64,000 bases of DNA, taken from Flavobacteriales bacterium (lineage in GTDB: Bacteria; Bacteroidota; Bacteroidia; Flavobacteriales_F; PHOS-HE28). The number at the start of each line of letters is the position of its first letter. Within the stretch, counting starts at the first letter, position 1. This document shows positions 9,475 through 17,550 of this stretch, piece after piece. The stretch spans positions 350,794 to 414,793 of the forward strand of contig JAHBUK010000004.1 of NCBI GenBank assembly GCA_019638115.1, written 5' to 3'. The translations under genes were made by a program, and so were the position numbers. A model generated the notes under the pieces. It ran no database searches and was not told the DNA's origin. It was given only the letters and a program-made list of their open reading frames with translations.

Positions 9475-10482
9475 ATGCATCGGAACCTTACCCTGATCGG
9501 CCTGTTGACCCTTGCACCAGCTGCTGTGCTGGCCCAACCAACGCTCACCTTCCCGGATAACGCCCCCACACCGGGCAACAGCTACAGTGTGAAATACGGC
9601 CCCTACCAACCTGCAGGTTCCACAGGAGCAGGACAGACTTGGGATTTCGGCGACCTATCCACCGATAGCACCAGCACGGTCCATGTAGAAGCACCCAACA
9701 GCGTACCTGGGGGCGCCGGTTTCCCCAATGCAACGGCGGCCGTGGTGGCACCCGATGGCACGCAGATCTTGGAAGCCAATGCAACCGGCCTTTTCCTCTT
9801 GGGAGGTGAACTATTCGGTCAGTCCGCCCCATTCACCGACCCGGCCCAACACTTGGCGTACCCATGCACGTTCCAAACCAGTTGGGAAGACGCCTATGGA
9901 GGAACCGCCGATTTTGCCGGCCTACCGATCGAGTTGCAGGGCCAGGTGATCGGTATAGCGGATGGATACGGAACACTGGCACTGCCCGAAGCCGTTGTGA
10001 CCGATGTGCTCCGCGTTCATCGCACGGACATACTTGGCATCGTCACATTCCTGGGGACTTTCGAGCTTACCACCGAGCTCGTCCAGTTCTACAAGGCCGG
10101 CATCGACATTCCCGTGCTGGAGATCAGCTCATTGAGCGGCGACCTGCTTGGTGAACCGCTGTTGGTGCAAACCTTGCGCTGGGTGGACATGAGCGTGGTA
10201 TCCGTGAACGAACTCGAAAGTCGCGCGATCCAATTCACGGTATTCCCCAACCCCGCATCGGACATGGTACAAGTCGCCTACGACCTGGGAGACCATGCAC
10301 TGGCCAGCGTTGAGTTGATGGATCTGAGCGGACGTGCCGTTCGCAGTTTCAATGGGCTCGGTGCAGGACTTGGCAAGCAACTGCTCTCATTGCCTGTGGG
10401 GGACCTTGCGACTGGCAGCTACTTCTTGCGCATTACCAATTCGCAAGGCGCACAGGGCGTACGCCCCTTGCAGATCCAGTGA
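9475..10482 (+). CDS. Secreted protein of unknown function with T9SS sorting signal
   Basis: The 335 residues begin with a signal peptide (MHRNLTLIGLLTLAPAAVLA). A beta-rich body follows with the GSYSVKYGPY-like opening and a GAGQTWDFGDL motif typical of uncharacterised Bacteroidota surface proteins. The last 80 residues form a T9SS type A domain (VFPNPASDMVQVAYDL ... LATGSYFLRI). There is no enzyme motif. It follows yajQ by 27 bases but is functionally unrelated as far as can be seen. A strong hairpin closes the unit. Confidence 0.82.
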   Translation: MHRNLTLIGLLTLAPAAVLAQPTLTFPDNAPTPGNSYSVKYGPYQPAGSTGAGQTWDFGDLSTDSTSTVHVEAPNSVPGGAGFPNATAAVVAPDGTQILEANATGLFLLGGELFGQSAPFTDPAQHLAYPCTFQTSWEDAYGGTADFAGLPIELQGQVIGIADGYGTLALPEAVVTDVLRVHRTDILGIVTFLGTFELTTELVQFYKAGIDIPVLEISSLSGDLLGEPLLVQTLRWVDMSVVSVNELESRAIQFTVFPNPASDMVQVAYDLGDHALASVELMDLSGRAVRSFNGLGAGLGKQLLSLPVGDLATGSYFLRITNSQGAQGVRPLQIQ

Positions 10483-11048: not shown

Positions 11049-11372
11049 TCAGAACATGCCGTTGCTGTTGAGGAACATCACGAAGATGAAGGTCATGAGG
11101 AAGTGGTGCAGGAGCAACAGGACGGTAGCTGCGGTGAGGACCGCCTTCCCACTGGAGTTCAGTTCCGGGAAGAGCTTCTTGTTGTTCACCAGAATGATGG
11201 GCAGGGGAACAGTGGCCAACAAGAAGGTAACCGCAAGGGCTTTGAAGAGGAATGCATTACTGAGCAGCCCGAAGAACAGGTGCGCGTAGTAGAATGCAAG
11301 CCCGATGAAGGAAAGCAGGCCCAAGCGAATGAATATCCGTGCCTCAGTGACCATTTTCTGCTTCTGTTCCAT
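11049..11372 (-). CDS. Small integral membrane protein, unknown function
   Basis: The 107-residue product is strongly hydrophobic with three likely transmembrane helices (about 13-33, 41-62 and 78-102). It has a NNKKLFPELNSSGKAV loop between helices two and three. No family was recognised. Codon use and GC content match the neighbours, and the gene is coherent over its whole length. It lies 77 bases beyond the end of the membrane-protein operon to its right and may be its last, loosely attached member. Confidence 0.65.
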   Translation of the reverse strand: MEQKQKMVTEARIFIRLGLLSFIGLAFYYAHLFFGLLSNAFLFKALAVTFLLATVPLPIILVNNKKLFPELNSSGKAVLTAATVLLLLHHFLMTFIFVMFLNSNGMF

Positions 11373-11449: not shown

Positions 11450-12133
11450 TCACGGCCGCTTCATCGCATCCAGCGCACATCCGATCAGGCCCGCCGCTGC
11501 CGGGAATACGCTCAGCAGGAACCAGGCCCATGGGAACGGCCCTGGTACATACGTATGCATGCCGCTTGCCGGATCATGCAAGCCGCGAAGCCCTTGTGAC
11601 CAGGGATCTGCCATGAAGACGAGCACCATGGCAAATGCGCCACCCACCAATAGGCACCAATGCAGTACACGCACGCGGAAATGCGGATCGCGCGAACGCG
11701 CATGAAGCAACACCAGGCCGAGTGTTATCAACCCCACGGAGATGAGGCTCGGAGCCCATACCGGCCCCACCCAAGGCAGTGGCAAAAGGAACAACAGATC
11801 GTCCGTTGACCACGCGGCGGGCCAATCCAGCAGCACTTTCAACCACGCATAATAGCCAAGGTCCCAAAGCCCGAAGCCGAAGCAGAACCAAGCAAAGCGC
11901 TCCAGCGCCTTTCGGTTGGCAATGGCCGCCACGGCAAGCAGCATGATGACGGTGGCCCCTTCCCGGAGCAGTTCAGTGGTCACCAAGATGCCATCCATGG
12001 GCACCAATGGAAACTCAAATCCATTCGGGTAGTGGAGCGCACGCAGGTAGACCACCACGGCGCTTTCCAACAAGGCCATGGAGAGGAAGAACACGGTCAT
12101 CCACGGAAGTGGGCGTAGCGTATCAGAGCGCAT
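11450..12133 (-). CDS. Polytopic membrane protein, unknown function
   Basis: From the ATG at 12133 (MRSDTLRPLPWMTVFFLSMA) the protein has 227 residues and about six transmembrane helices. Charged residues lie in short loops, and there is a WPAAWSTDDLLFLLPLPWVGPVWAP segment. No family was recognised. The start overlaps the end of the endonuclease-like gene by 11 bases, which points to translational coupling. The upstream extension to 12235 has no hydrophobic start and lies wholly inside the previous gene, so it was not used. Confidence 0.7.
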   Translation of the reverse strand: MRSDTLRPLPWMTVFFLSMALLESAVVVYLRALHYPNGFEFPLVPMDGILVTTELLREGATVIMLLAVAAIANRKALERFAWFCFGFGLWDLGYYAWLKVLLDWPAAWSTDDLLFLLPLPWVGPVWAPSLISVGLITLGLVLLHARSRDPHFRVRVLHWCLLVGGAFAMVLVFMADPWSQGLRGLHDPASGMHTYVPGPFPWAWFLLSVFPAAAGLIGCALDAMKRP

Positions 12134-13049
12134 GGTCAGCACGATCGATCCTGGCGGAGATGCCCCGGTGGTCGCTACCGGGTATGGGGAACGAGGAGAT
12201 CCGGCCCGCAACAAGCCCTGAAGAGGCCAGCACATGATCCAAGGGCATCAACGCGAAGGGGCCGATAGAGGGCCATGTGCGGAAACTGGAACGGCTGCCC
12301 GCGCGCAAGCCGCTTACCGAGCATAAGCGTAGGAAACTCCGGTCCCAGGGAACGGTGTTCAGGTCCCCGATGAGCACGGTGGGATGCTCGCTATCCTTCA
12401 AGCGGACCGCCAGTTGGCCGAGTTGCCGGTTGCGCTGTTGGAAATGACCGTGGCTTTGGGGCGATGTGGCGTGCACCGCCACGATGCGTACCGGATCATG
12501 ATCAAGGGCGACCAAAGCTTCTATGTACGGAGTGCCTTCCAGCAGATCGGCGCGCAGGTCCTGCAAGGGCACCTTGCTGAACAGTGCCATCCCGTAACAG
12601 TCCGTGCGCGGCACCAGCAAGTGGTACGGGTGGCTTTGGGCGAAGCTGCGTTCCAGATGCTCCGCCCAGTCGTGGTCCAATTCCTGGACCGAGAAAATGT
12701 CCGCATCGCGCTCACGCAGCAGATCCATTACTTCCTCCTTGCGCGTGTTCGGTTGCAACACGTTGAAGTGCGCGATGGACAAACCCGTACCACTATTCGT
12801 TCGCCCATGTTCCGCCACGGGGATCCGCACATGCAGGAGGATGAGCAGCGCTACGAACAGAGCCGAAGCAGCGGCCGGTCGGTAGCGGCGGAGGAACAGT
12901 AGTACCGCAAGCACCGGTAGGGCCCAACTCCAAGGGATCAGGAACGCACGCATCAGCATCGGCAGAAAATCGTCCGGTGCGAACACGAGCGCGGACCCGA
13001 TGGCCAGGATGGACAGGATGATCCACGGTTCTTCCCTTTTCATGATCAT
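12123..13049 (-). CDS. Membrane-anchored endonuclease/exonuclease/phosphatase-family protein
   Basis: This 308-residue protein has two or three N-terminal transmembrane helices (about 10-75). An EEP-fold domain follows with its diagnostic motifs: IAHFNVLQPN (metal-binding Asn), FSVQELDHDW (catalytic Glu), HATSPQSHG, GDLNTVPWD and a terminal GSDHRGISARI (catalytic Asp-His). All expected residues are present. Members cleave phosphodiesters in nucleic acids, inositol phosphates or sphingomyelin; this membrane-tethered bacterial type has no assigned substrate. The start ATGA at 13046-13049 overlaps the previous stop, so translation is coupled. Confidence 0.85.
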   Translation of the reverse strand: MIMKREEPWIILSILAIGSALVFAPDDFLPMLMRAFLIPWSWALPVLAVLLFLRRYRPAAASALFVALLILLHVRIPVAEHGRTNSGTGLSIAHFNVLQPNTRKEEVMDLLRERDADIFSVQELDHDWAEHLERSFAQSHPYHLLVPRTDCYGMALFSKVPLQDLRADLLEGTPYIEALVALDHDPVRIVAVHATSPQSHGHFQQRNRQLGQLAVRLKDSEHPTVLIGDLNTVPWDRSFLRLCSVSGLRAGSRSSFRTWPSIGPFALMPLDHVLASSGLVAGRISSFPIPGSDHRGISARIDRADHAL

Positions 13050-13546
13050 GCGGTTATCGGGTTACTGCCTTCCAACTTGCGGATATCGGACATTACGGGT
13101 AGCAAAACCATGGCACCGACCACACCGAATGCAGCGTCAACACAGCGCCAGAACAAGGGGATATCCCGGAAGGGCGCCCAGGTGAATGCCATGACCACGA
13201 CCAAAACGCAGCACCAAAGCCCCCACTCCACCACCCACTTGTTGCGCACTGGATCACGCAGTGGACCGATGAAGGCCAGGGCGATGACCACATGGGCAAA
13301 GGCCAGCCAGTCGGTGCCATAAAGCAGGAAGGGATAACGGTCGGCCACATCCGCCACGGCTTCAGCAGCAAGGGAGGCCCAAGCATGCCATGGTCCGGTC
13401 CAATGGGTGGTGAGTTGGGCCAACCAGGCCGTGCCCGATTCCAACGGGATCGCAGTGAGCCCACTGACCACCAATGCCGCCATGAAGAAGAGCAGTAAGG
13501 CGCGGATGCGGCGCATGTGGAAGTTCTTCGTTCTACCCATGGCCAT
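13046..13546 (-). CDS. Small polytopic membrane protein, unknown function
   Basis: The 166-residue product has about four hydrophobic helices (about 14-33, 80-100, 110-128, 140-158) and a conserved-looking YPFLLYGTDWLAFAH segment. No family was recognised by name. It starts four bases after the DUF4173 gene and overlaps the next gene by four bases (ATGA), so it sits inside a tightly coupled operon. Confidence 0.72.
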   Translation of the reverse strand: MAMGRTKNFHMRRIRALLLFFMAALVVSGLTAIPLESGTAWLAQLTTHWTGPWHAWASLAAEAVADVADRYPFLLYGTDWLAFAHVVIALAFIGPLRDPVRNKWVVEWGLWCCVLVVVMAFTWAPFRDIPLFWRCVDAAFGVVGAMVLLPVMSDIRKLEGSNPITA

Positions 13547-13549
13547 CGG

Positions 13550-15082
13550 TCATTGAGCAGCCAAGCGCTGCGCGGTGCGGTGATCGGCCCAGTTCCACTC
13601 CTGCCAACGCTGCTCCGCCATGCGTCGCTGGAACCTTGCCTTGCGCTGGTCCAACTGTTTATTGAACACGTACGGATCCAACTGGTCCACCCAGCGGACC
13701 TCGTTCCGTTGATGCTGATGGATCTGCTGTTCCACTTTGCTCAGGTCCGCATAGATCAGGGGCAGAACGTGATCGTTCATGTCCAGGTAGTTGTCAATAT
13801 CGATCTCACCTGCATTGGGATGTTGCAGGTTGGTGCGTACGATGAGCACATCCCAATCCACAGTTGTGAGCAGGACCAAGGAGAAGAAGGCCACCATGCT
13901 GTTCACCCGCACCAGGTGGAAGAAGCTCTTGCATGATCGGATCTTGCGGAACAGGGTGAAGAGCCCCACCAGTACGAGCACCAGGAACACGATGACACCG
14001 ATGCGCTTGTACGCCAGGCCATGGAAGGCCATGTAGTGGTGGTTGCGGAGGAAGACCGAGAAGCCGAGCACCAGGTTCTGAAGCACCCACAATTGGCCAA
14101 GTTGCTTCAGGCGTTCCGAGCGGGGATGGAAGTTGAGGTTGTTACGGAACAGGTAGAGCAGCACCACCATGCTCAGGAGGATGCTCAGGATCAGCACCCA
14201 GGTCCCTTCGTGCACGAACTGTTTCAAGCTGAAACCCTCAGGCACTTCAAAGCCGAACCAGACCCATTGGATATCGATGATGTTGACCACCAGGAGCAAG
14301 GCATTCACCAGCACGAGCAGGATCAAGCCCATGCGGAGTTCGCGATCCAGAGCGTTCATGCTCAGGGGTACGAGCCAAGTGGGTCGTCGGACCTTGCGCC
14401 GCAAGAGCACATCCGACCACTGCAATTCAAGGCGCGAGATCCAATCGGGGGCCGTTCGCCGAAGCAACACTGCGCATACCGCCAGTGCGTAGAGAAAGAA
14501 AAGCGTGTTGGCGGTGAATATGCCAGTGATCAGCTCGCCAAGCCACTCGAACGTGATGCCGAAAAAGCTTGCCGCCACTTGATCGAAGCGTGGATTTCCC
14601 ACCCGGTATAGTTGCATGAACACAAGCCCGATGATCACGGGCAGGATGGCCAGGCTCCAGATCGACCAACGCACTTTGGGACGCGCATCCCCATGCAATA
14701 CATCTCCGGTCCCGAGCCAAGCGACCTTCGGCAACTTGATGACCGCCGTGAAGAACTGTGGCAGCGCATACCAGACGCTTCGGATACGCGCCTCATGGGC
14801 CAATGCGGATGAGATACAAAGACCGGTGATGGTGGCCACCATGGCGATGGTACTATTGTGCACCACCACCATCAGGGCTGCGAGCACCGTTCCCAACAGC
14901 GTGGCGCGTGCAGGCAACGAGAGCCCCCGCCAACCGTAGCGCTGCAACAGAATGGCCACGTAGATCAGTGTGAAGAGCGGATAGTTGAGCCCCGCACTAC
15001 GCTCCTTGAAGAGCAAAAAGAAAATGACCGCGGTAGGGAACAGCGTGGCCAAGGTCTGCCAACGGGAAGGGATGCTCTGCAT
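13550..15082 (-). CDS. DUF4173 domain-containing membrane protein
   Basis: This 510-residue polytopic membrane protein has about ten to twelve helices. The N-terminal AGLNYPLFTLIYVAILL and internal NSTIAMV/ISSALAHE motifs are typical of DUF4173 (related to DUF4153) proteins. A hydrophilic C-terminal tail (about 415-510, DMNDHVLPLIYADLSKVEQQ) is rich in Gln and Arg. Function is unknown. It follows the winged-helix gene by ten bases, so it is probably co-transcribed with it and under its control. Confidence 0.85.
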   Translation of the reverse strand: MQSIPSRWQTLATLFPTAVIFFLLFKERSAGLNYPLFTLIYVAILLQRYGWRGLSLPARATLLGTVLAALMVVVHNSTIAMVATITGLCISSALAHEARIRSVWYALPQFFTAVIKLPKVAWLGTGDVLHGDARPKVRWSIWSLAILPVIIGLVFMQLYRVGNPRFDQVAASFFGITFEWLGELITGIFTANTLFFLYALAVCAVLLRRTAPDWISRLELQWSDVLLRRKVRRPTWLVPLSMNALDRELRMGLILLVLVNALLLVVNIIDIQWVWFGFEVPEGFSLKQFVHEGTWVLILSILLSMVVLLYLFRNNLNFHPRSERLKQLGQLWVLQNLVLGFSVFLRNHHYMAFHGLAYKRIGVIVFLVLVLVGLFTLFRKIRSCKSFFHLVRVNSMVAFFSLVLLTTVDWDVLIVRTNLQHPNAGEIDIDNYLDMNDHVLPLIYADLSKVEQQIHQHQRNEVRWVDQLDPYVFNKQLDQRKARFQRRMAEQRWQEWNWADHRTAQRLAAQ

Positions 15083-15092
15083 GGGAGTTCGA

Positions 15093-15380
15093 TCAGTTCT
15101 TGGGAAGAAGGCGTTCGATGGCGCTTAGATGATCTCGGAATGCTTGGGCGCCGGCTTCGGTGGACTTGTAGCTGGTATTCGGCCTGCGGCCGATGAAACG
15201 TTTGCGAACCTGCACATAGCGCAACTGCTCAAGCGCCGATAAGTGGCTGGCCAAGTTGCCATCGGTAACCCCGAGCAATTCCTTCAGCGTGGCATGGTCC
15301 ACCCACTCGTTCACCACGAGCACGGCCATGATCCCGAGCCGGACCCGACTTTCGAATGCCTTATTGAGCTGCTCGATCAT
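15093..15380 (-). CDS. Winged-helix transcriptional regulator (MarR/ArsR-like)
   Basis: From ATG 15380 the product is 95 residues: MIEQLNKAFESRVRLGIMAV, then the helix-turn-helix DHATLKELLGVTDGNLASHLSALE and a wing (YVQVRKRFIGRRPNTSYKST). This is the compact single-domain type with no ligand domain. The start ATGA overlaps the stop of the membrane-protein gene upstream. Regulators of this kind in Bacteroidota commonly sit next to such a membrane protein; control of the operon through the palindrome at 16052-16068 is inferred. The longer open frame upstream lies inside the membrane gene and was rejected. Confidence 0.88.
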   Translation of the reverse strand: MIEQLNKAFESRVRLGIMAVLVVNEWVDHATLKELLGVTDGNLASHLSALEQLRYVQVRKRFIGRRPNTSYKSTEAGAQAFRDHLSAIERLLPKN

Positions 15381-16042
15381 TCGGCGGTGGGTGTCCTGTC
15401 CTCCATTTCGTGGCGTACGTACATGAGCGCTCCGTAGAACACATGGAGCACACCGAAACCGATGGCCCAGAACATCAGCCCCGCACCCGGCCAGAACAGG
15501 CCGCAAAGGCCCAGCAGTAGCTCGCTGTAGCCCAACCAACGGATCTCATCCAAGGTGAACTTCGAAGCATTGACCAAGGCAAGCCCATAGAAGACCAGTG
15601 TGGAGGCCGGCACCAGGCCGGGCAAGCCATGCAGAAGCAGGGCAAGGCAGAAAATGCCACCACCGGCCAGGGGGACAAGCATGGCCACGAGAAGCCTCAG
15701 TGAAGTGGCATTGAACAGGAACTGCCCCATCCGGCGGGTTCGTTTCCACGTGAACCACAATGCACCGGCAAGTGCGGTGACCAGAACCGCCATGGCCATC
15801 AATACGAGCACCAACAGGTGCTGGCGGTAGTCCGAGTCACTGATGTGCTCATCCTGATACGTGATGGGGTGTTCGGCGACGAGCAAGGCATCCCGCATGT
15901 ACCACTGCGCCGCAAAGGCGCCGAGCAAAGCCACAACCCCGGCCACCACGCCGCTGAGGCCGCTAAGGCTTAGGAAGCGCGTGCTCCGGTCCATCAATCC
16001 GCGGATGCGTGCCAGTTCGTTGTGTGCGTCGTTGGTCTGCAT
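15377..16042 (-). CDS. Membrane protein paired with the winged-helix regulator
   Basis: From ATG 16042 (MQTNDAHNELARIRGLMDRS) the 221 residues hold a short cytoplasmic N-terminus and six likely transmembrane helices (about 26-47, 75-97, 110-130, 137-155, 160-178, 183-205). Function is unknown. Because it is cotranslated with the regulator, it may sense something at the membrane or modulate the regulator; that is inference. The ATG at 16063 would place the coding start inside the operator and -7 box, so 16042 is preferred. Confidence 0.8.
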   Translation of the reverse strand: MQTNDAHNELARIRGLMDRSTRFLSLSGLSGVVAGVVALLGAFAAQWYMRDALLVAEHPITYQDEHISDSDYRQHLLVLVLMAMAVLVTALAGALWFTWKRTRRMGQFLFNATSLRLLVAMLVPLAGGGIFCLALLLHGLPGLVPASTLVFYGLALVNASKFTLDEIRWLGYSELLLGLCGLFWPGAGLMFWAIGFGVLHVFYGALMYVRHEMEDRTPTAE

Positions 16043-16051
16043 ATTCAAAGT

Positions 16052-16070
16052 ACTTTGTATCACAAAGTTA
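16052..16070 (-). promoter_or_regulatory. Perfect palindromic operator over the promoter of the winged-helix operon
   Basis: ACTTTGT-ATC-ACAAAGT (16052-16068) is a perfect 7-3-7 inverted repeat. On the minus strand it overlaps a -7 box TAACTTTG (16063-16070) located 20 bases before the ATG at 16042. Such placement allows a repressor to exclude RNA polymerase, and the winged-helix protein encoded by the second gene is the obvious candidate. Confidence 0.65.
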
Positions 16071-16120: not shown

Positions 16121-16825
16121 TCAGTGGTGCGGCGTGCTCATCGCAGCCACTGCAGCGCCAAGCAGCACTGCCATGAAACGGGCACGGTCCATACGATGCC
16201 CAGGCGAGCTCTCGAAGATGATGGTGGCACCGATGTGCAACAGCATGCCAATGGCCATGCCCAGCATGTTGTGCAGAAAGGACATGCCCAACCCTTTGCC
16301 GACCAGATCGCCCACCAGAATGCCGAGCGGTGCTGCCATGGCGAACAGCACCAACAAGGTCCAACTCTGACGAACGCCGGTGCCCGAACGCATCAGCAAG
16401 GTGGCCAGCGCAATGGCCATGGGCACCTTGTGCAACACCACACCCGCCAGGAACGGCAGGTTGCCAGCCACTTGCGGATCGGCAAAGGGGATCCCTTCCA
16501 CGAACGAATGGATGCATAGGCCGAGCACGGGCAGCACCGGCACCACAACACCACTAACGGGGTGGATATGCCCATGTTCGATACCCTTGCTCAAGGACTC
16601 CAACATCACCTGGAGCAGGAAGCCGCCCAAGATCCAGAGGCCCAGGGAAGCCCCTTCCTCTTCATACAGTTCGGGCAACATGTGAACGAACACCACGCCC
16701 AACAGGAATGCACCACTGGCGGACAGGAGCAGGTGTAACCAACGCGCATCGGGACGCAACACGCGCACCGTAGCCCCTGCTATCAGGGGCACCAAGAAGA
16801 ATGTGGCTACAACGAAGAGTATCAT
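16121..16825 (-). CDS. ZIP family metal transporter
   Basis: The 234-residue membrane protein has about eight helices and the two ZIP signature helices: HSFVEGIPFA (TM4, about 112-121) and HKVPMAIALA (TM5, about 137-146). These supply the His, Glu and Pro residues of the metal channel. A His-containing EHGHIHP loop precedes TM4, as usual for ZIPs. Family members import Zn2+, Fe2+ or Mn2+ into the cytoplasm. The start ATGA overlaps the methyltransferase stop, so the two genes form one transcription unit; no functional link between them is obvious. Confidence 0.9.
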   Translation of the reverse strand: MILFVVATFFLVPLIAGATVRVLRPDARWLHLLLSASGAFLLGVVFVHMLPELYEEEGASLGLWILGGFLLQVMLESLSKGIEHGHIHPVSGVVVPVLPVLGLCIHSFVEGIPFADPQVAGNLPFLAGVVLHKVPMAIALATLLMRSGTGVRQSWTLLVLFAMAAPLGILVGDLVGKGLGMSFLHNMLGMAIGMLLHIGATIIFESSPGHRMDRARFMAVLLGAAVAAMSTPHH

Positions 16826-17550
16826 TTGCCTGATTTGCGCAACCAAAGAACGGACCTGGAGGAACGTGCCGGATCGAATGGGCTCAATTCAGGTCCATCC
16901 GTGTGACCATCCAGCCGGAACCCGGCCTCATGGGCCATGGCTACCAACTGTTCCGGCGTTATGGCACGCACCCGCTCCTCAAAGCAGTGGCGAACGTTGT
17001 CGTCCACAACGGACACCTGCTTCACGATCACCCCATCCACCAACGCACGGGAAACATGGAATTCCAGCCCTCCGGCTTGCACGGTCTCCACGGGCACCAA
17101 TTCGGTGAGCACCCGGTGCGTGTTCATGAAGTCGATGACGAAACGACCGTTGGGTTTGAGCGCATCGGCCACGGCCAGGAACACTGCCCGGTCATCTTCG
17201 GGCCGATCGAAATAACCAAGGCTCGTGAAGAGGCAACAAGCTGCATCGAAACGTTCCTGAGCAAAGGGCACACGCATATCATGCACATGGAACTCGGCCG
17301 ATGGCACCAAGTTCCGGGCTTCCAGTATGCTCGCTTCGGAAATGTCCACCCCGGTCACATCCATGCCGGCCTCGCTCAACCAGCGGGCATGGCGGCCACG
17401 CCCGCACGCCAGATCAAGAATGCTACTGCCCTTGGGCAGGTGCCATTCGCCCAGAATGGCATCCACCCACACCCGGGCATCGCCTTCATTGCGATGGCCG
17501 TAGAGCAGCGCATAGTAGCGCGTTCCGAACCAATTCTTGAACCAGGTCAT
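16822..17550 (-). CDS. Class I SAM-dependent methyltransferase
   Basis: From ATG 17550 (MTWFKNWFGTRYYALLYGHR) the 242-residue protein carries motif I SILDLACGRGRHARWLSEAG (about 44-63), an acidic motif II VTGVDISEASI and motif FDAACCLFTSLGYF. Methyl acceptor unknown; the MTWFKNWF-YY-LLY opening is typical of an uncharacterised Bacteroidota group. A TACTTTCG -7-like box lies 26-33 bases upstream. The frame extends to 17637 but the extra residues are not conserved-looking and would run over the promoter. Confidence 0.87.
   Translation of the reverse strand: MTWFKNWFGTRYYALLYGHRNEGDARVWVDAILGEWHLPKGSSILDLACGRGRHARWLSEAGMDVTGVDISEASILEARNLVPSAEFHVHDMRVPFAQERFDAACCLFTSLGYFDRPEDDRAVFLAVADALKPNGRFVIDFMNTHRVLTELVPVETVQAGGLEFHVSRALVDGVIVKQVSVVDDNVRHCFEERVRAITPEQLVAMAHEAGFRLDGHTDGPELSPFDPARSSRSVLWLRKSGK

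What the first reader, a model, noticed from the sequence alone, without database searches (positions are those of the whole stretch)
11450..16070. Membrane-protein operon with an overlapping operator
Six genes in a row (membrane protein, winged-helix regulator, DUF4173, small membrane protein, membrane-bound EEP-fold enzyme, membrane protein) are joined by ATGA overlaps or gaps of 3-10 bases. The first is preceded by ACTTTGT-ATC-ACAAAGT overlapping its -7 box. The palindrome looks like the binding site of the encoded winged-helix protein. A membrane-attached phosphodiesterase-like enzyme with five unknown partners under dedicated control is an undescribed system.
Basis: partly seen in the sequence, partly recalled or inferred. 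Interest (0 to 1): 0.55.

Follow-up and report, generated by a model that had tools for sequence, protein, structure and literature searches.

The report
Membrane-protein and repressor pair of Bacteroidota
A six-helix membrane protein and a small DNA-binding protein sit side by side behind the same DNA palindrome in many members of the bacterial phylum Bacteroidota and appear to form an undescribed switch that controls sets of cell-envelope genes.

Summary
The minus-strand operon has seven genes: six-TM protein, HTH_34 winged-helix regulator, DUF4153 (not DUF4173), a membrane-tethered EEP-fold enzyme and three further membrane proteins. The palindrome is part of a three-half-site operator, ACTTTG-N5-CAAAGT-ACTTTG, whose left arm is the -7 box and which ends 3 bp before the first start codon. 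The exact operator occurs in 80 of 295 genomes of the class (reversed pattern: 0 of 295). All 80 carry a close regulator orthologue; none of the 203 genomes without one has an exact site. Gene 1 and the regulator lie together on one strand in 92 of 92 genomes. A site with at most 1 mismatch lies upstream in 78 of 80 named loci, and with at most 2 in 19 of 20 loci from a phylum-wide search. 57 of 80 carry a second copy behind the regulator; dispersed copies precede related genes. A paralogous pair has its own operator of similar layout. Best reading: an autoregulated repressor paired with a membrane partner that probably senses the envelope. Binding, repression and signal are inferred. Ten paper searches found no description.

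The parts
   Evidence: upstream of the pair in 78 of 80 named loci with at most 1 mismatch to the first two half-sites
16063..16070 (-). -7 box TAACTTTG (consensus TAnnTTTG), overlapping the left operator arm
   Evidence: consensus and its position -12 to -5 from passages of PMC9723704
15377..16042 (-). gene 1: six-TM protein with an N-terminal helix placed in the cytoplasm by charge; proposed membrane partner/sensor
   Evidence: AF2 model pLDDT 90.5; no Pfam family above its cut-off
15093..15380 (-). gene 2: HTH_34 winged-helix regulator
   Evidence: PF13601 E 8.5e-27; relative of 1UB9
13550..15082 (-). gene 3: DUF4153 multi-TM protein
   Evidence: PF13687 E 1.2e-31; AF2 model pLDDT 86.1
13046..13546 (-). 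gene 4: small membrane protein
   Evidence: no Pfam match at E 0.1; in 11 of 14 near-kin loci
12123..13049 (-). gene 5: three TM helices followed by an EEP (endonuclease/exonuclease/phosphatase) domain; candidate catalytic set N96 E123 H193 D229 N231 D293 H294
   Evidence: PF03372 E 1.4e-29; hydropathy and the seven residues, identical in all 12 homologues found
11450..12133 (-). gene 6: membrane protein
   Evidence: no Pfam match at E 0.1; in 12 of 14 near-kin loci
11049..11372 (-). gene 7: small membrane protein, seventh member of the run
   Evidence: 11 of 14 near-kin loci

Best explanation
A two-gene regulatory dyad. Gene 2 encodes an HTH_34 winged-helix repressor. As a dimer, with a further half-site beside it, it binds ACTTTG-N5-CAAAGT-ACTTT over the -7 box and start point of its own operon and so keeps RNA polymerase off. 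Gene 1 encodes a six-TM protein with a conserved N-terminal helix on the cytoplasmic face. It reads the state of the inner membrane or envelope and, through that helix, changes the repressor's DNA binding (sequestration or release). When the repressor lets go, the cell makes more of the pair (feedback) and a set of envelope proteins: here DUF4153, an outward-facing membrane-tethered EEP hydrolase and three further membrane proteins; in other lineages CreD, a Coq4-like protein, DUF1361, a prokaryotic diacylglycerol-kinase family enzyme and others, often under further copies of the same operator. Shown by sequence: operator, its overlap with the -7 box, its conservation, the pairing of genes 1 and 2, dispersed copies. 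Inferred: that gene 2 binds the site, that it represses, that gene 1 is the sensor, that the output is envelope homeostasis. Rough likelihoods: operator of gene 2 about 0.93; repression about 0.8; gene 1 controls gene 2 about 0.6; envelope homeostasis about 0.55.
For: Exact ACTTTGNNNNNCAAAGTNCTTT in 80 of 295 class genomes, the same pattern reversed in 0 of 295. Close regulator orthologue (122-168 bits; next best 80 bits) in 92 of 295. All 80 site genomes are among the 92; 203 genomes have neither. The other 12 have a core site with 0-1 mismatch before gene 1 (11; the 12th, G010 = L006). Gene 1 in the same 92 genomes, same contig and strand, median gap 23 bp between hits, largest 671. Of 149 exact sites listed, 56 lie within 60 bp before gene 1 and 52 within 400 bp after the regulator. 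Site with at most 2 mismatches in the place before gene 1 in 19 of 20 loci, 19 of the 20 from other classes, up to 62% GC. Column statistics outside the searched core: T at -2, a -33-like TT[TG][GT] before site 1, third half-site CTTT; first ATG a median 9 bp after the right arm. Of 38 dispersed exact sites, 25 precede, within three genes, a family that also occurs in the cluster; by gene, 28 of 87 downstream genes against 5 of 133 other genes of the same stretches. The paralogous HTH_34 is preceded by a TM partner of about 195 aa in 23 of 24 loci, which aligns to gene 1 by profile (Prob 83, E 8.9e-6; ten other families Prob at most 4.3), with its own operator GTTTATN3ATAAAC in 14 of 24.
Against: No binding, expression or interaction data. 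Co-occurrence over 295 genomes is not corrected for relatedness (sites in 50 of 155 genera). The dyad is patchy: 20 of 35 genomes of the genus, 92 of 295 in the class, 72 of 198 in the phylum sample at E 1e-25. An exact site lies directly before gene 1 in only 56 of the 92; some of the 80 have exact sites only elsewhere. Repression rests on operator position only. Nothing shows that gene 1 touches gene 2; it might be only a target. Exceptions: L067 has no good site upstream (best 2 mismatches), L030 none at up to 4 mismatches, L231 none. 12 of the 38 dispersed sites precede genes not tied to the cluster's families, some of them exopolysaccharide-like, and one was not examined. The paralogue partner profile has only 4 sequences. 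Gene 1 and DUF4153 have no fold match in the PDB, so neither has a known activity.
Confidence: 0.7

Rival explanations
1. The regulator binds the operator and represses, but its signal is a cytoplasmic ligand or its own abundance; gene 1 is only a co-regulated membrane protein.
For: The regulator also has weak matches to ArsR/PadR-type models; many such one-component regulators sense small ligands (recalled).
Against: The regulator is only 95 aa, nearly all of it the winged-helix domain. Gene 1 accompanies it in 92 of 92 genomes while the other cluster genes come and go, and the paralogous regulators have a similar partner.
Confidence: 0.22
2. The regulator is an activator: binding at the promoter recruits or positions the polymerase, and the operator overlap with the -7 box is part of the activated promoter.
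For: Site 2 copies, and site 1 in the window's near kin, lack a recognisable -33 element, as activated promoters often do (recalled).
Against: Site 1 outside the near kin has a -33-like TT[TG][GT] and a -7 box, and the operator runs past the predicted start point, which favours occlusion.
Confidence: 0.13
3. The palindrome is bound by some other widespread factor, and the encoded regulator has a different site.
For: Not excluded by any binding assay.
Against: 0 of 203 genomes without the regulator have the exact site, against 80 of 92 with it. Many paralogous HTH_34 pairs have a different palindrome of similar layout in the same place.
Confidence: 0.05
4. Chance palindrome or a by-product of the TTTG of the -7 box.
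For: In the 64-kb window alone a match with up to 3 mismatches is expected by chance.
Against: Reversed pattern 0 of 295 genomes; both arms and the third half-site recur in loci from AT-rich to 62% GC.
Confidence: 0.01

Closest known systems
HAAS-PadR-like wHTH dyads (predicted in PMC11237479; passages read)
   Same: A stand-alone winged-helix regulator coupled to a neighbouring membrane protein, proposed there as an alternative to two-component signalling and tied to membrane stress.
   Different: Gene 1 matches no HAAS-type Pfam model and the regulator is HTH_34, with PadR only at E 0.094, below its cut-off. Here an operator is identified and conserved.
CreBC / CreD regulon of proteobacteria (recalled)
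   Same: CreD (PF06123) is a frequent target here (24 of 80 named loci; one representative E 1.5e-139). A paper titled as reporting that a Stenotrophomonas cell-envelope-integrity homologue confers multi-antibiotic resistance was seen in a search listing only (PMC10821804).
   Different: Control here is tied to an HTH_34 regulator and this operator; I saw no kinase/response-regulator pair among the recurrent neighbours.
VanJ, membrane-tethered EEP enzyme named for teicoplanin resistance
   Same: TM helices followed by an EEP domain (VanJ's layout is recalled); weak similarity (E 5.9e-7).
   Different: 29 bits against a family cut-off of 700, so not VanJ; substrate unknown.
PH1061 (PDB 1UB9)
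   Same: Only solved relative of the regulator at E 0.001 (E 3.8e-11).
   Different: Deposited as a hypothetical protein; no partner or operator known from this search.

Membership tests
HTH_34 (PF13601) winged-helix regulators | match to the Pfam model above its cut-off | tested here: met
   93.6 bits against cut-off 27, residues 13-92 of 95
HTH_34 (PF13601) winged-helix regulators | sequence-specific DNA binding | not testable with these tools
   inferred from footprint and co-occurrence
HAAS-PadR dyad | PadR-like winged helix | tested here: not met
   PadR E 0.094, 13.2 bits against cut-off 27
HAAS-PadR dyad | HAAS domain (DUF1700/DUF1129/DUF1048) in the partner | tested here: not met
   gene 1 (window copy and L104 copy) gave no such match in Pfam at E 0.1 and 0.05
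HAAS-PadR dyad | regulator gene coupled to the membrane partner gene | tested here: met
   92 of 92 genomes, same contig and strand
DUF4153 | match to PF13687 above cut-off | tested here: met
   110.7 bits against cut-off 27
EEP superfamily (PF03372) | Pfam match and catalytic residues | tested here: met
   103.8 bits against 24.5; N, E, H, D, N, D, H identical in 12 of 12 homologues. The residue roles are recalled.
VanJ | NCBIfam NF000373 above cut-off | tested here: not met
   29.2 bits against 700

The most novel reading that the evidence does not exclude
Bacteroidota possess an ancient family of membrane-partner/HTH_34 dyads, each with its own operator of similar layout (half-site, 3 bp, half-site, then a third half-site 2-3 bp on). 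They act as a kinase-free membrane-to-DNA signalling system; the branch seen here is an envelope-homeostasis switch found across the phylum that controls CreD, DUF4153, lipid-phosphate enzymes and other membrane proteins.
Probability: 0.5. Interest if true: 0.78.

Novelty: new variant of a known kind. Interest (0 to 1): 0.62.

Why it matters
If true, it gives Bacteroidota, a phylum with few mapped envelope-stress circuits (recalled), a conserved regulator with a known operator, so that its regulon can be read off any genome that has it. It would also place orphan membrane families (DUF4153, CreD, DUF1361, DUF4184) in one response, and show that winged-helix proteins paired with membrane proteins form a recurring kinase-free signalling type beyond the HAAS-PadR dyads. 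The claim is directly testable in tractable Flavobacterium laboratory strains.

Tried and rejected
Rejected: the run as an 'EEP system' of six linked parts (the enzyme is confined almost entirely to near kin). Rejected: DUF4173. Rejected: dispersed sites as random matches, because the reversed pattern gives none in 295 genomes and downstream genes are enriched in cluster families.

Led nowhere: sigma-70-type promoter scan (0 found, 3.2 expected in shuffles) and terminator scan (12 found, 7.2 expected). PDB fold search with the gene 1 and DUF4153 models: best E 0.86 and 1.2. A complex of regulator and gene 1 could not be predicted with these tools. The one-mismatch GTTTATN3ATAAAC place at G000:C4:116459 was looked at without a clear target gene. 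Paper searches: (all ten). Searches for DUF4153 with or without 'transcriptional regulator', for ACTTTG with palindrome and Bacteroidetes, for CreD with Bacteroidota terms, and for literal operator strings, HTH_34 or PF13601 showed nothing on this dyad or operator. In the two papers opened for CreD the match was the word 'CRediT'; the other listed papers were not opened. The library lacks most subscription papers, so absence is not proof.

Dropped or uneven rows: the upstream count of 78 of 80 leaves out L040 (118 bp of upstream DNA only) and L067 (best upstream hit 2 mismatches, probably chance); one search's looser '79 of 80' counts L067. 'Near kin' are L034-L046 (chosen by regulator identity of 73% or more) plus L207, a same-genus genome; L036 and L207 look nearly identical. 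In one search, 72 genomes matched; I fetched 20 (19 of the 38 outside the class, and L233 inside it). In one search gene 1 was recognised by BLAST in 14 of the 20. Of the 38 dispersed sites one (G247:C80, L114) was not examined. The count of 24 that a first script gave left L157 out because of a distance filter; one search gives 25. The paralogue partner's start codon was chosen nearest to 195 aa, so its narrow length range is partly my choice, and its operator was first seen in the same sequences in which it was then counted, so 14 of 24 is partly circular; the single exact match in the own genome at the expected place is not. The Wza/Wzc, DUF2236/MpaB, DUF2809, DoxX and exosortase/VIT labels are my reading of sequences, not family searches. 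Genes in loci outside the window were called by a simple longest-ORF script.
Full report
WHAT IS THERE. The window lies in a 4.06-Mb genome; its closest named relatives are Flavobacteriales and Bacteroidota MAGs. On the minus strand, 16042-11049, seven genes follow one another. They are gene 1 (221 aa, membrane), gene 2 (95 aa, HTH_34 winged helix, PF13601 E 8.5e-27), gene 3 (510 aa, DUF4153, PF13687 E 1.2e-31), gene 4 (166 aa, membrane), gene 5 (308 aa, EEP enzyme, PF03372 E 1.4e-29), gene 6 (227 aa, membrane) and gene 7 (107 aa, membrane).

THE OPERATOR. Read in the direction of transcription, the sequence before gene 1 is TA-ACTTTG-TGATA-CAAAGT-ACTTTG-AAT-ATG. TAACTTTG fits the TAnnTTTG -7 box, which Flavobacterium psychrophilum work places at -12 to -5 (PMC9723704, passages). 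The start point would then fall inside the palindrome, with a leader of about 16 bases. The palindrome is joined by a third half-site, ACTTTG.

FOOTPRINT. Of 35 genomes of the genus, 20 have the close regulator orthologue, and all 20 loci (L004-L023) have the site with at most 3 mismatches to the 14-letter pattern; six of seven class-level orthologue loci (L024-L030) also have it, L030 does not. Among 80 named loci fetched with the regulator profile, 78 have ACTTTGN5CAAAGT with at most one mismatch upstream and 57 have a second copy behind the regulator. These sets overlap (Tried and rejected). Columns outside the searched core are also conserved: T at -2, CTTT of the third half-site, and, outside the near kin, a -33-like TT[TG][GT] at -25 to -22 before site 1. 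In 20 loci picked from a phylum-wide search, 19 of them outside the class, 19 have the site with at most 2 mismatches 639-710 bp before the regulator match, the place of gene 1; this includes loci of 52-62% GC. L231 has none.

UNBIASED GENOME TEST. In 295 genomes of the class the exact 16-letter pattern ACTTTGNNNNNCAAAGTNCTTT occurs in 80, the same letters reversed in none. A profile search for the regulator splits the same genomes cleanly: 92 have a hit of 122-168 bits, all other listed hits are at most 80 bits. All 80 site genomes are within the 92; 203 genomes have neither (Fisher 9e-60, not corrected for relatedness; 50 of 155 genera have the site). The remaining 12 regulator genomes have a core site with 0-1 mismatch before gene 1 (11; G010 as L006).

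THE PAIR. A profile of gene 1 hits 93 of 295 genomes: the same 92 plus one weak lone hit, G164 at 44.7 bits. In 92 of 92 the two genes are on one contig and strand; the median gap between hits is 23 bp, the largest 671 bp. The rest of the cluster is exchangeable. Among the 80 named loci, clustering finds DUF4153 in 41, CreD in 24 and a Coq4-like protein in 25; others hold DUF1361, DAGK_prokar, metallophosphoesterase, peptidase C92, DUF218 and DUF4184. Among 14 near-kin loci the window's order is kept: gene 3 in 14, gene 4 in 11, gene 5 in 11, gene 6 in 12, gene 7 in 11; contig ends explain the misses except in L034, which lacks genes 4 and 5. In the other 67 loci tblastn found gene 3 in 32, gene 4 in 7, gene 6 in 4 and gene 5 in 1.

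DISPERSED SITES. Of 149 exact sites listed, 56 lie within 60 bp before gene 1, 52 within 400 bp behind the regulator, 3 further upstream of gene 1 and 38 elsewhere. In 25 of the 38 a family known from the cluster follows within three genes (DUF4153, Coq4-like, small TM proteins, c27, C92, a B12/radical-SAM protein, a large protein shared with L067). As a control, 28 of 87 downstream genes but only 5 of 133 other genes in the same stretches belong to these families. The rest precede, by my reading, exopolysaccharide-like genes (3), DUF2236-like genes (3) and genes that I could not assign (6); one site was not examined.

GENE 1. AlphaFold2 gives six long helices, the first (residues 4-52) combining an N-terminal stretch with TM1 (pLDDT 90.5). 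Invariant or near-invariant residues include I13, M17, S20, F23, S25-G28, S30 and G31, at the N-terminal end that positive charges place in the cytoplasm (inference). No fold match in the PDB (best E 0.86).

A DUPLICATED DYAD. The genome has a second, more distant HTH_34 gene (L204). In 23 of 24 paralogue loci examined a TM protein of about 195 aa lies directly before it, and a profile of four of these aligns to gene 1 over 154 columns (Prob 83, E 8.9e-6) while ten other families give at most Prob 4.3. Many paralogue pairs have another palindrome, GTTTATN3ATAAAC, with at most one mismatch in 14 of 24, against 0.4% of shuffles (the motif was found in the same sequences). In the own genome it occurs once without mismatch, before that pair, and once more with one mismatch elsewhere. 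Central spacer and third half-site follow a similar layout. This supports, semi-independently, that HTH_34 proteins bind the palindrome before their partner gene.

HOW IT PROBABLY WORKS. The repressor occupies operator and start point; the membrane partner, through its cytoplasmic helix, relays the state of the membrane; release raises the pair and its target membrane proteins. The targets point to the envelope. CreD is linked to envelope integrity in other bacteria (recalled). DAGK, EEP and metallophosphoesterase suggest lipid or lipid-carrier phosphate chemistry (inference). The EEP enzyme has three hydrophobic segments and, by the charges between them, faces outwards (inference), as I recall for VanJ; its seven candidate catalytic residues are identical in 12 of 12 homologues. 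Binding, direction of control, sensor role and signal remain to be shown.

KNOWN OR NEW. The nearest concept is the HAAS-PadR dyad (PMC11237479, passages), but neither protein matches its defining domains. Ten paper searches showed no description of this dyad or operator, within a library that lacks most subscription journals. I rate it a new variant of a known kind: a one-component winged-helix autoregulator with a membrane partner.

Noticed in passing
site 2 behind the regulator, e.g. L051 8286-8330, L084, L105: A tract of 7-8 T: each of positions -15 to -9 of the second operator copy is T in 93-96% of 57 sites, seen also in other classes, and site 2 lacks the -33 element of site 1. Role unknown (terminator, bend or roadblock).
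   Followed up: partly
G000:C1:844970-844984 (L204, L260): A paralogous TM-protein/HTH_34 pair with its own operator GTTTATN3ATAAAC just upstream of a TAnnTTTG box; similar three-half-site layout.
   Followed up: partly
L177, L178, L180 (G084, G311, G238): Single exact operators 26-30 bp before genes that read like exopolysaccharide export (Wza/Wzc type) in three genomes of one family; suggests capture of surface polysaccharide genes into the regulon.
   Followed up: no
L145, L153, L067: Operators before large membrane proteins that look like exosortase-associated VIT proteins (my reading).
   Followed up: no
L067, L074, L112, L113: Extra genes (peptidase C92 or DUF218 type) inserted between gene 1 and the regulator.
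   Followed up: no
window 16121-16846: ZIP-type zinc transporter gene (PF02535) ends 52 bp upstream of the operator on the same strand.
   Followed up: no
window 9475-10482: Protein with a Por secretion-system C-terminal sorting domain (PF18962), typical of type IX secretion substrates (recalled).
   Followed up: no
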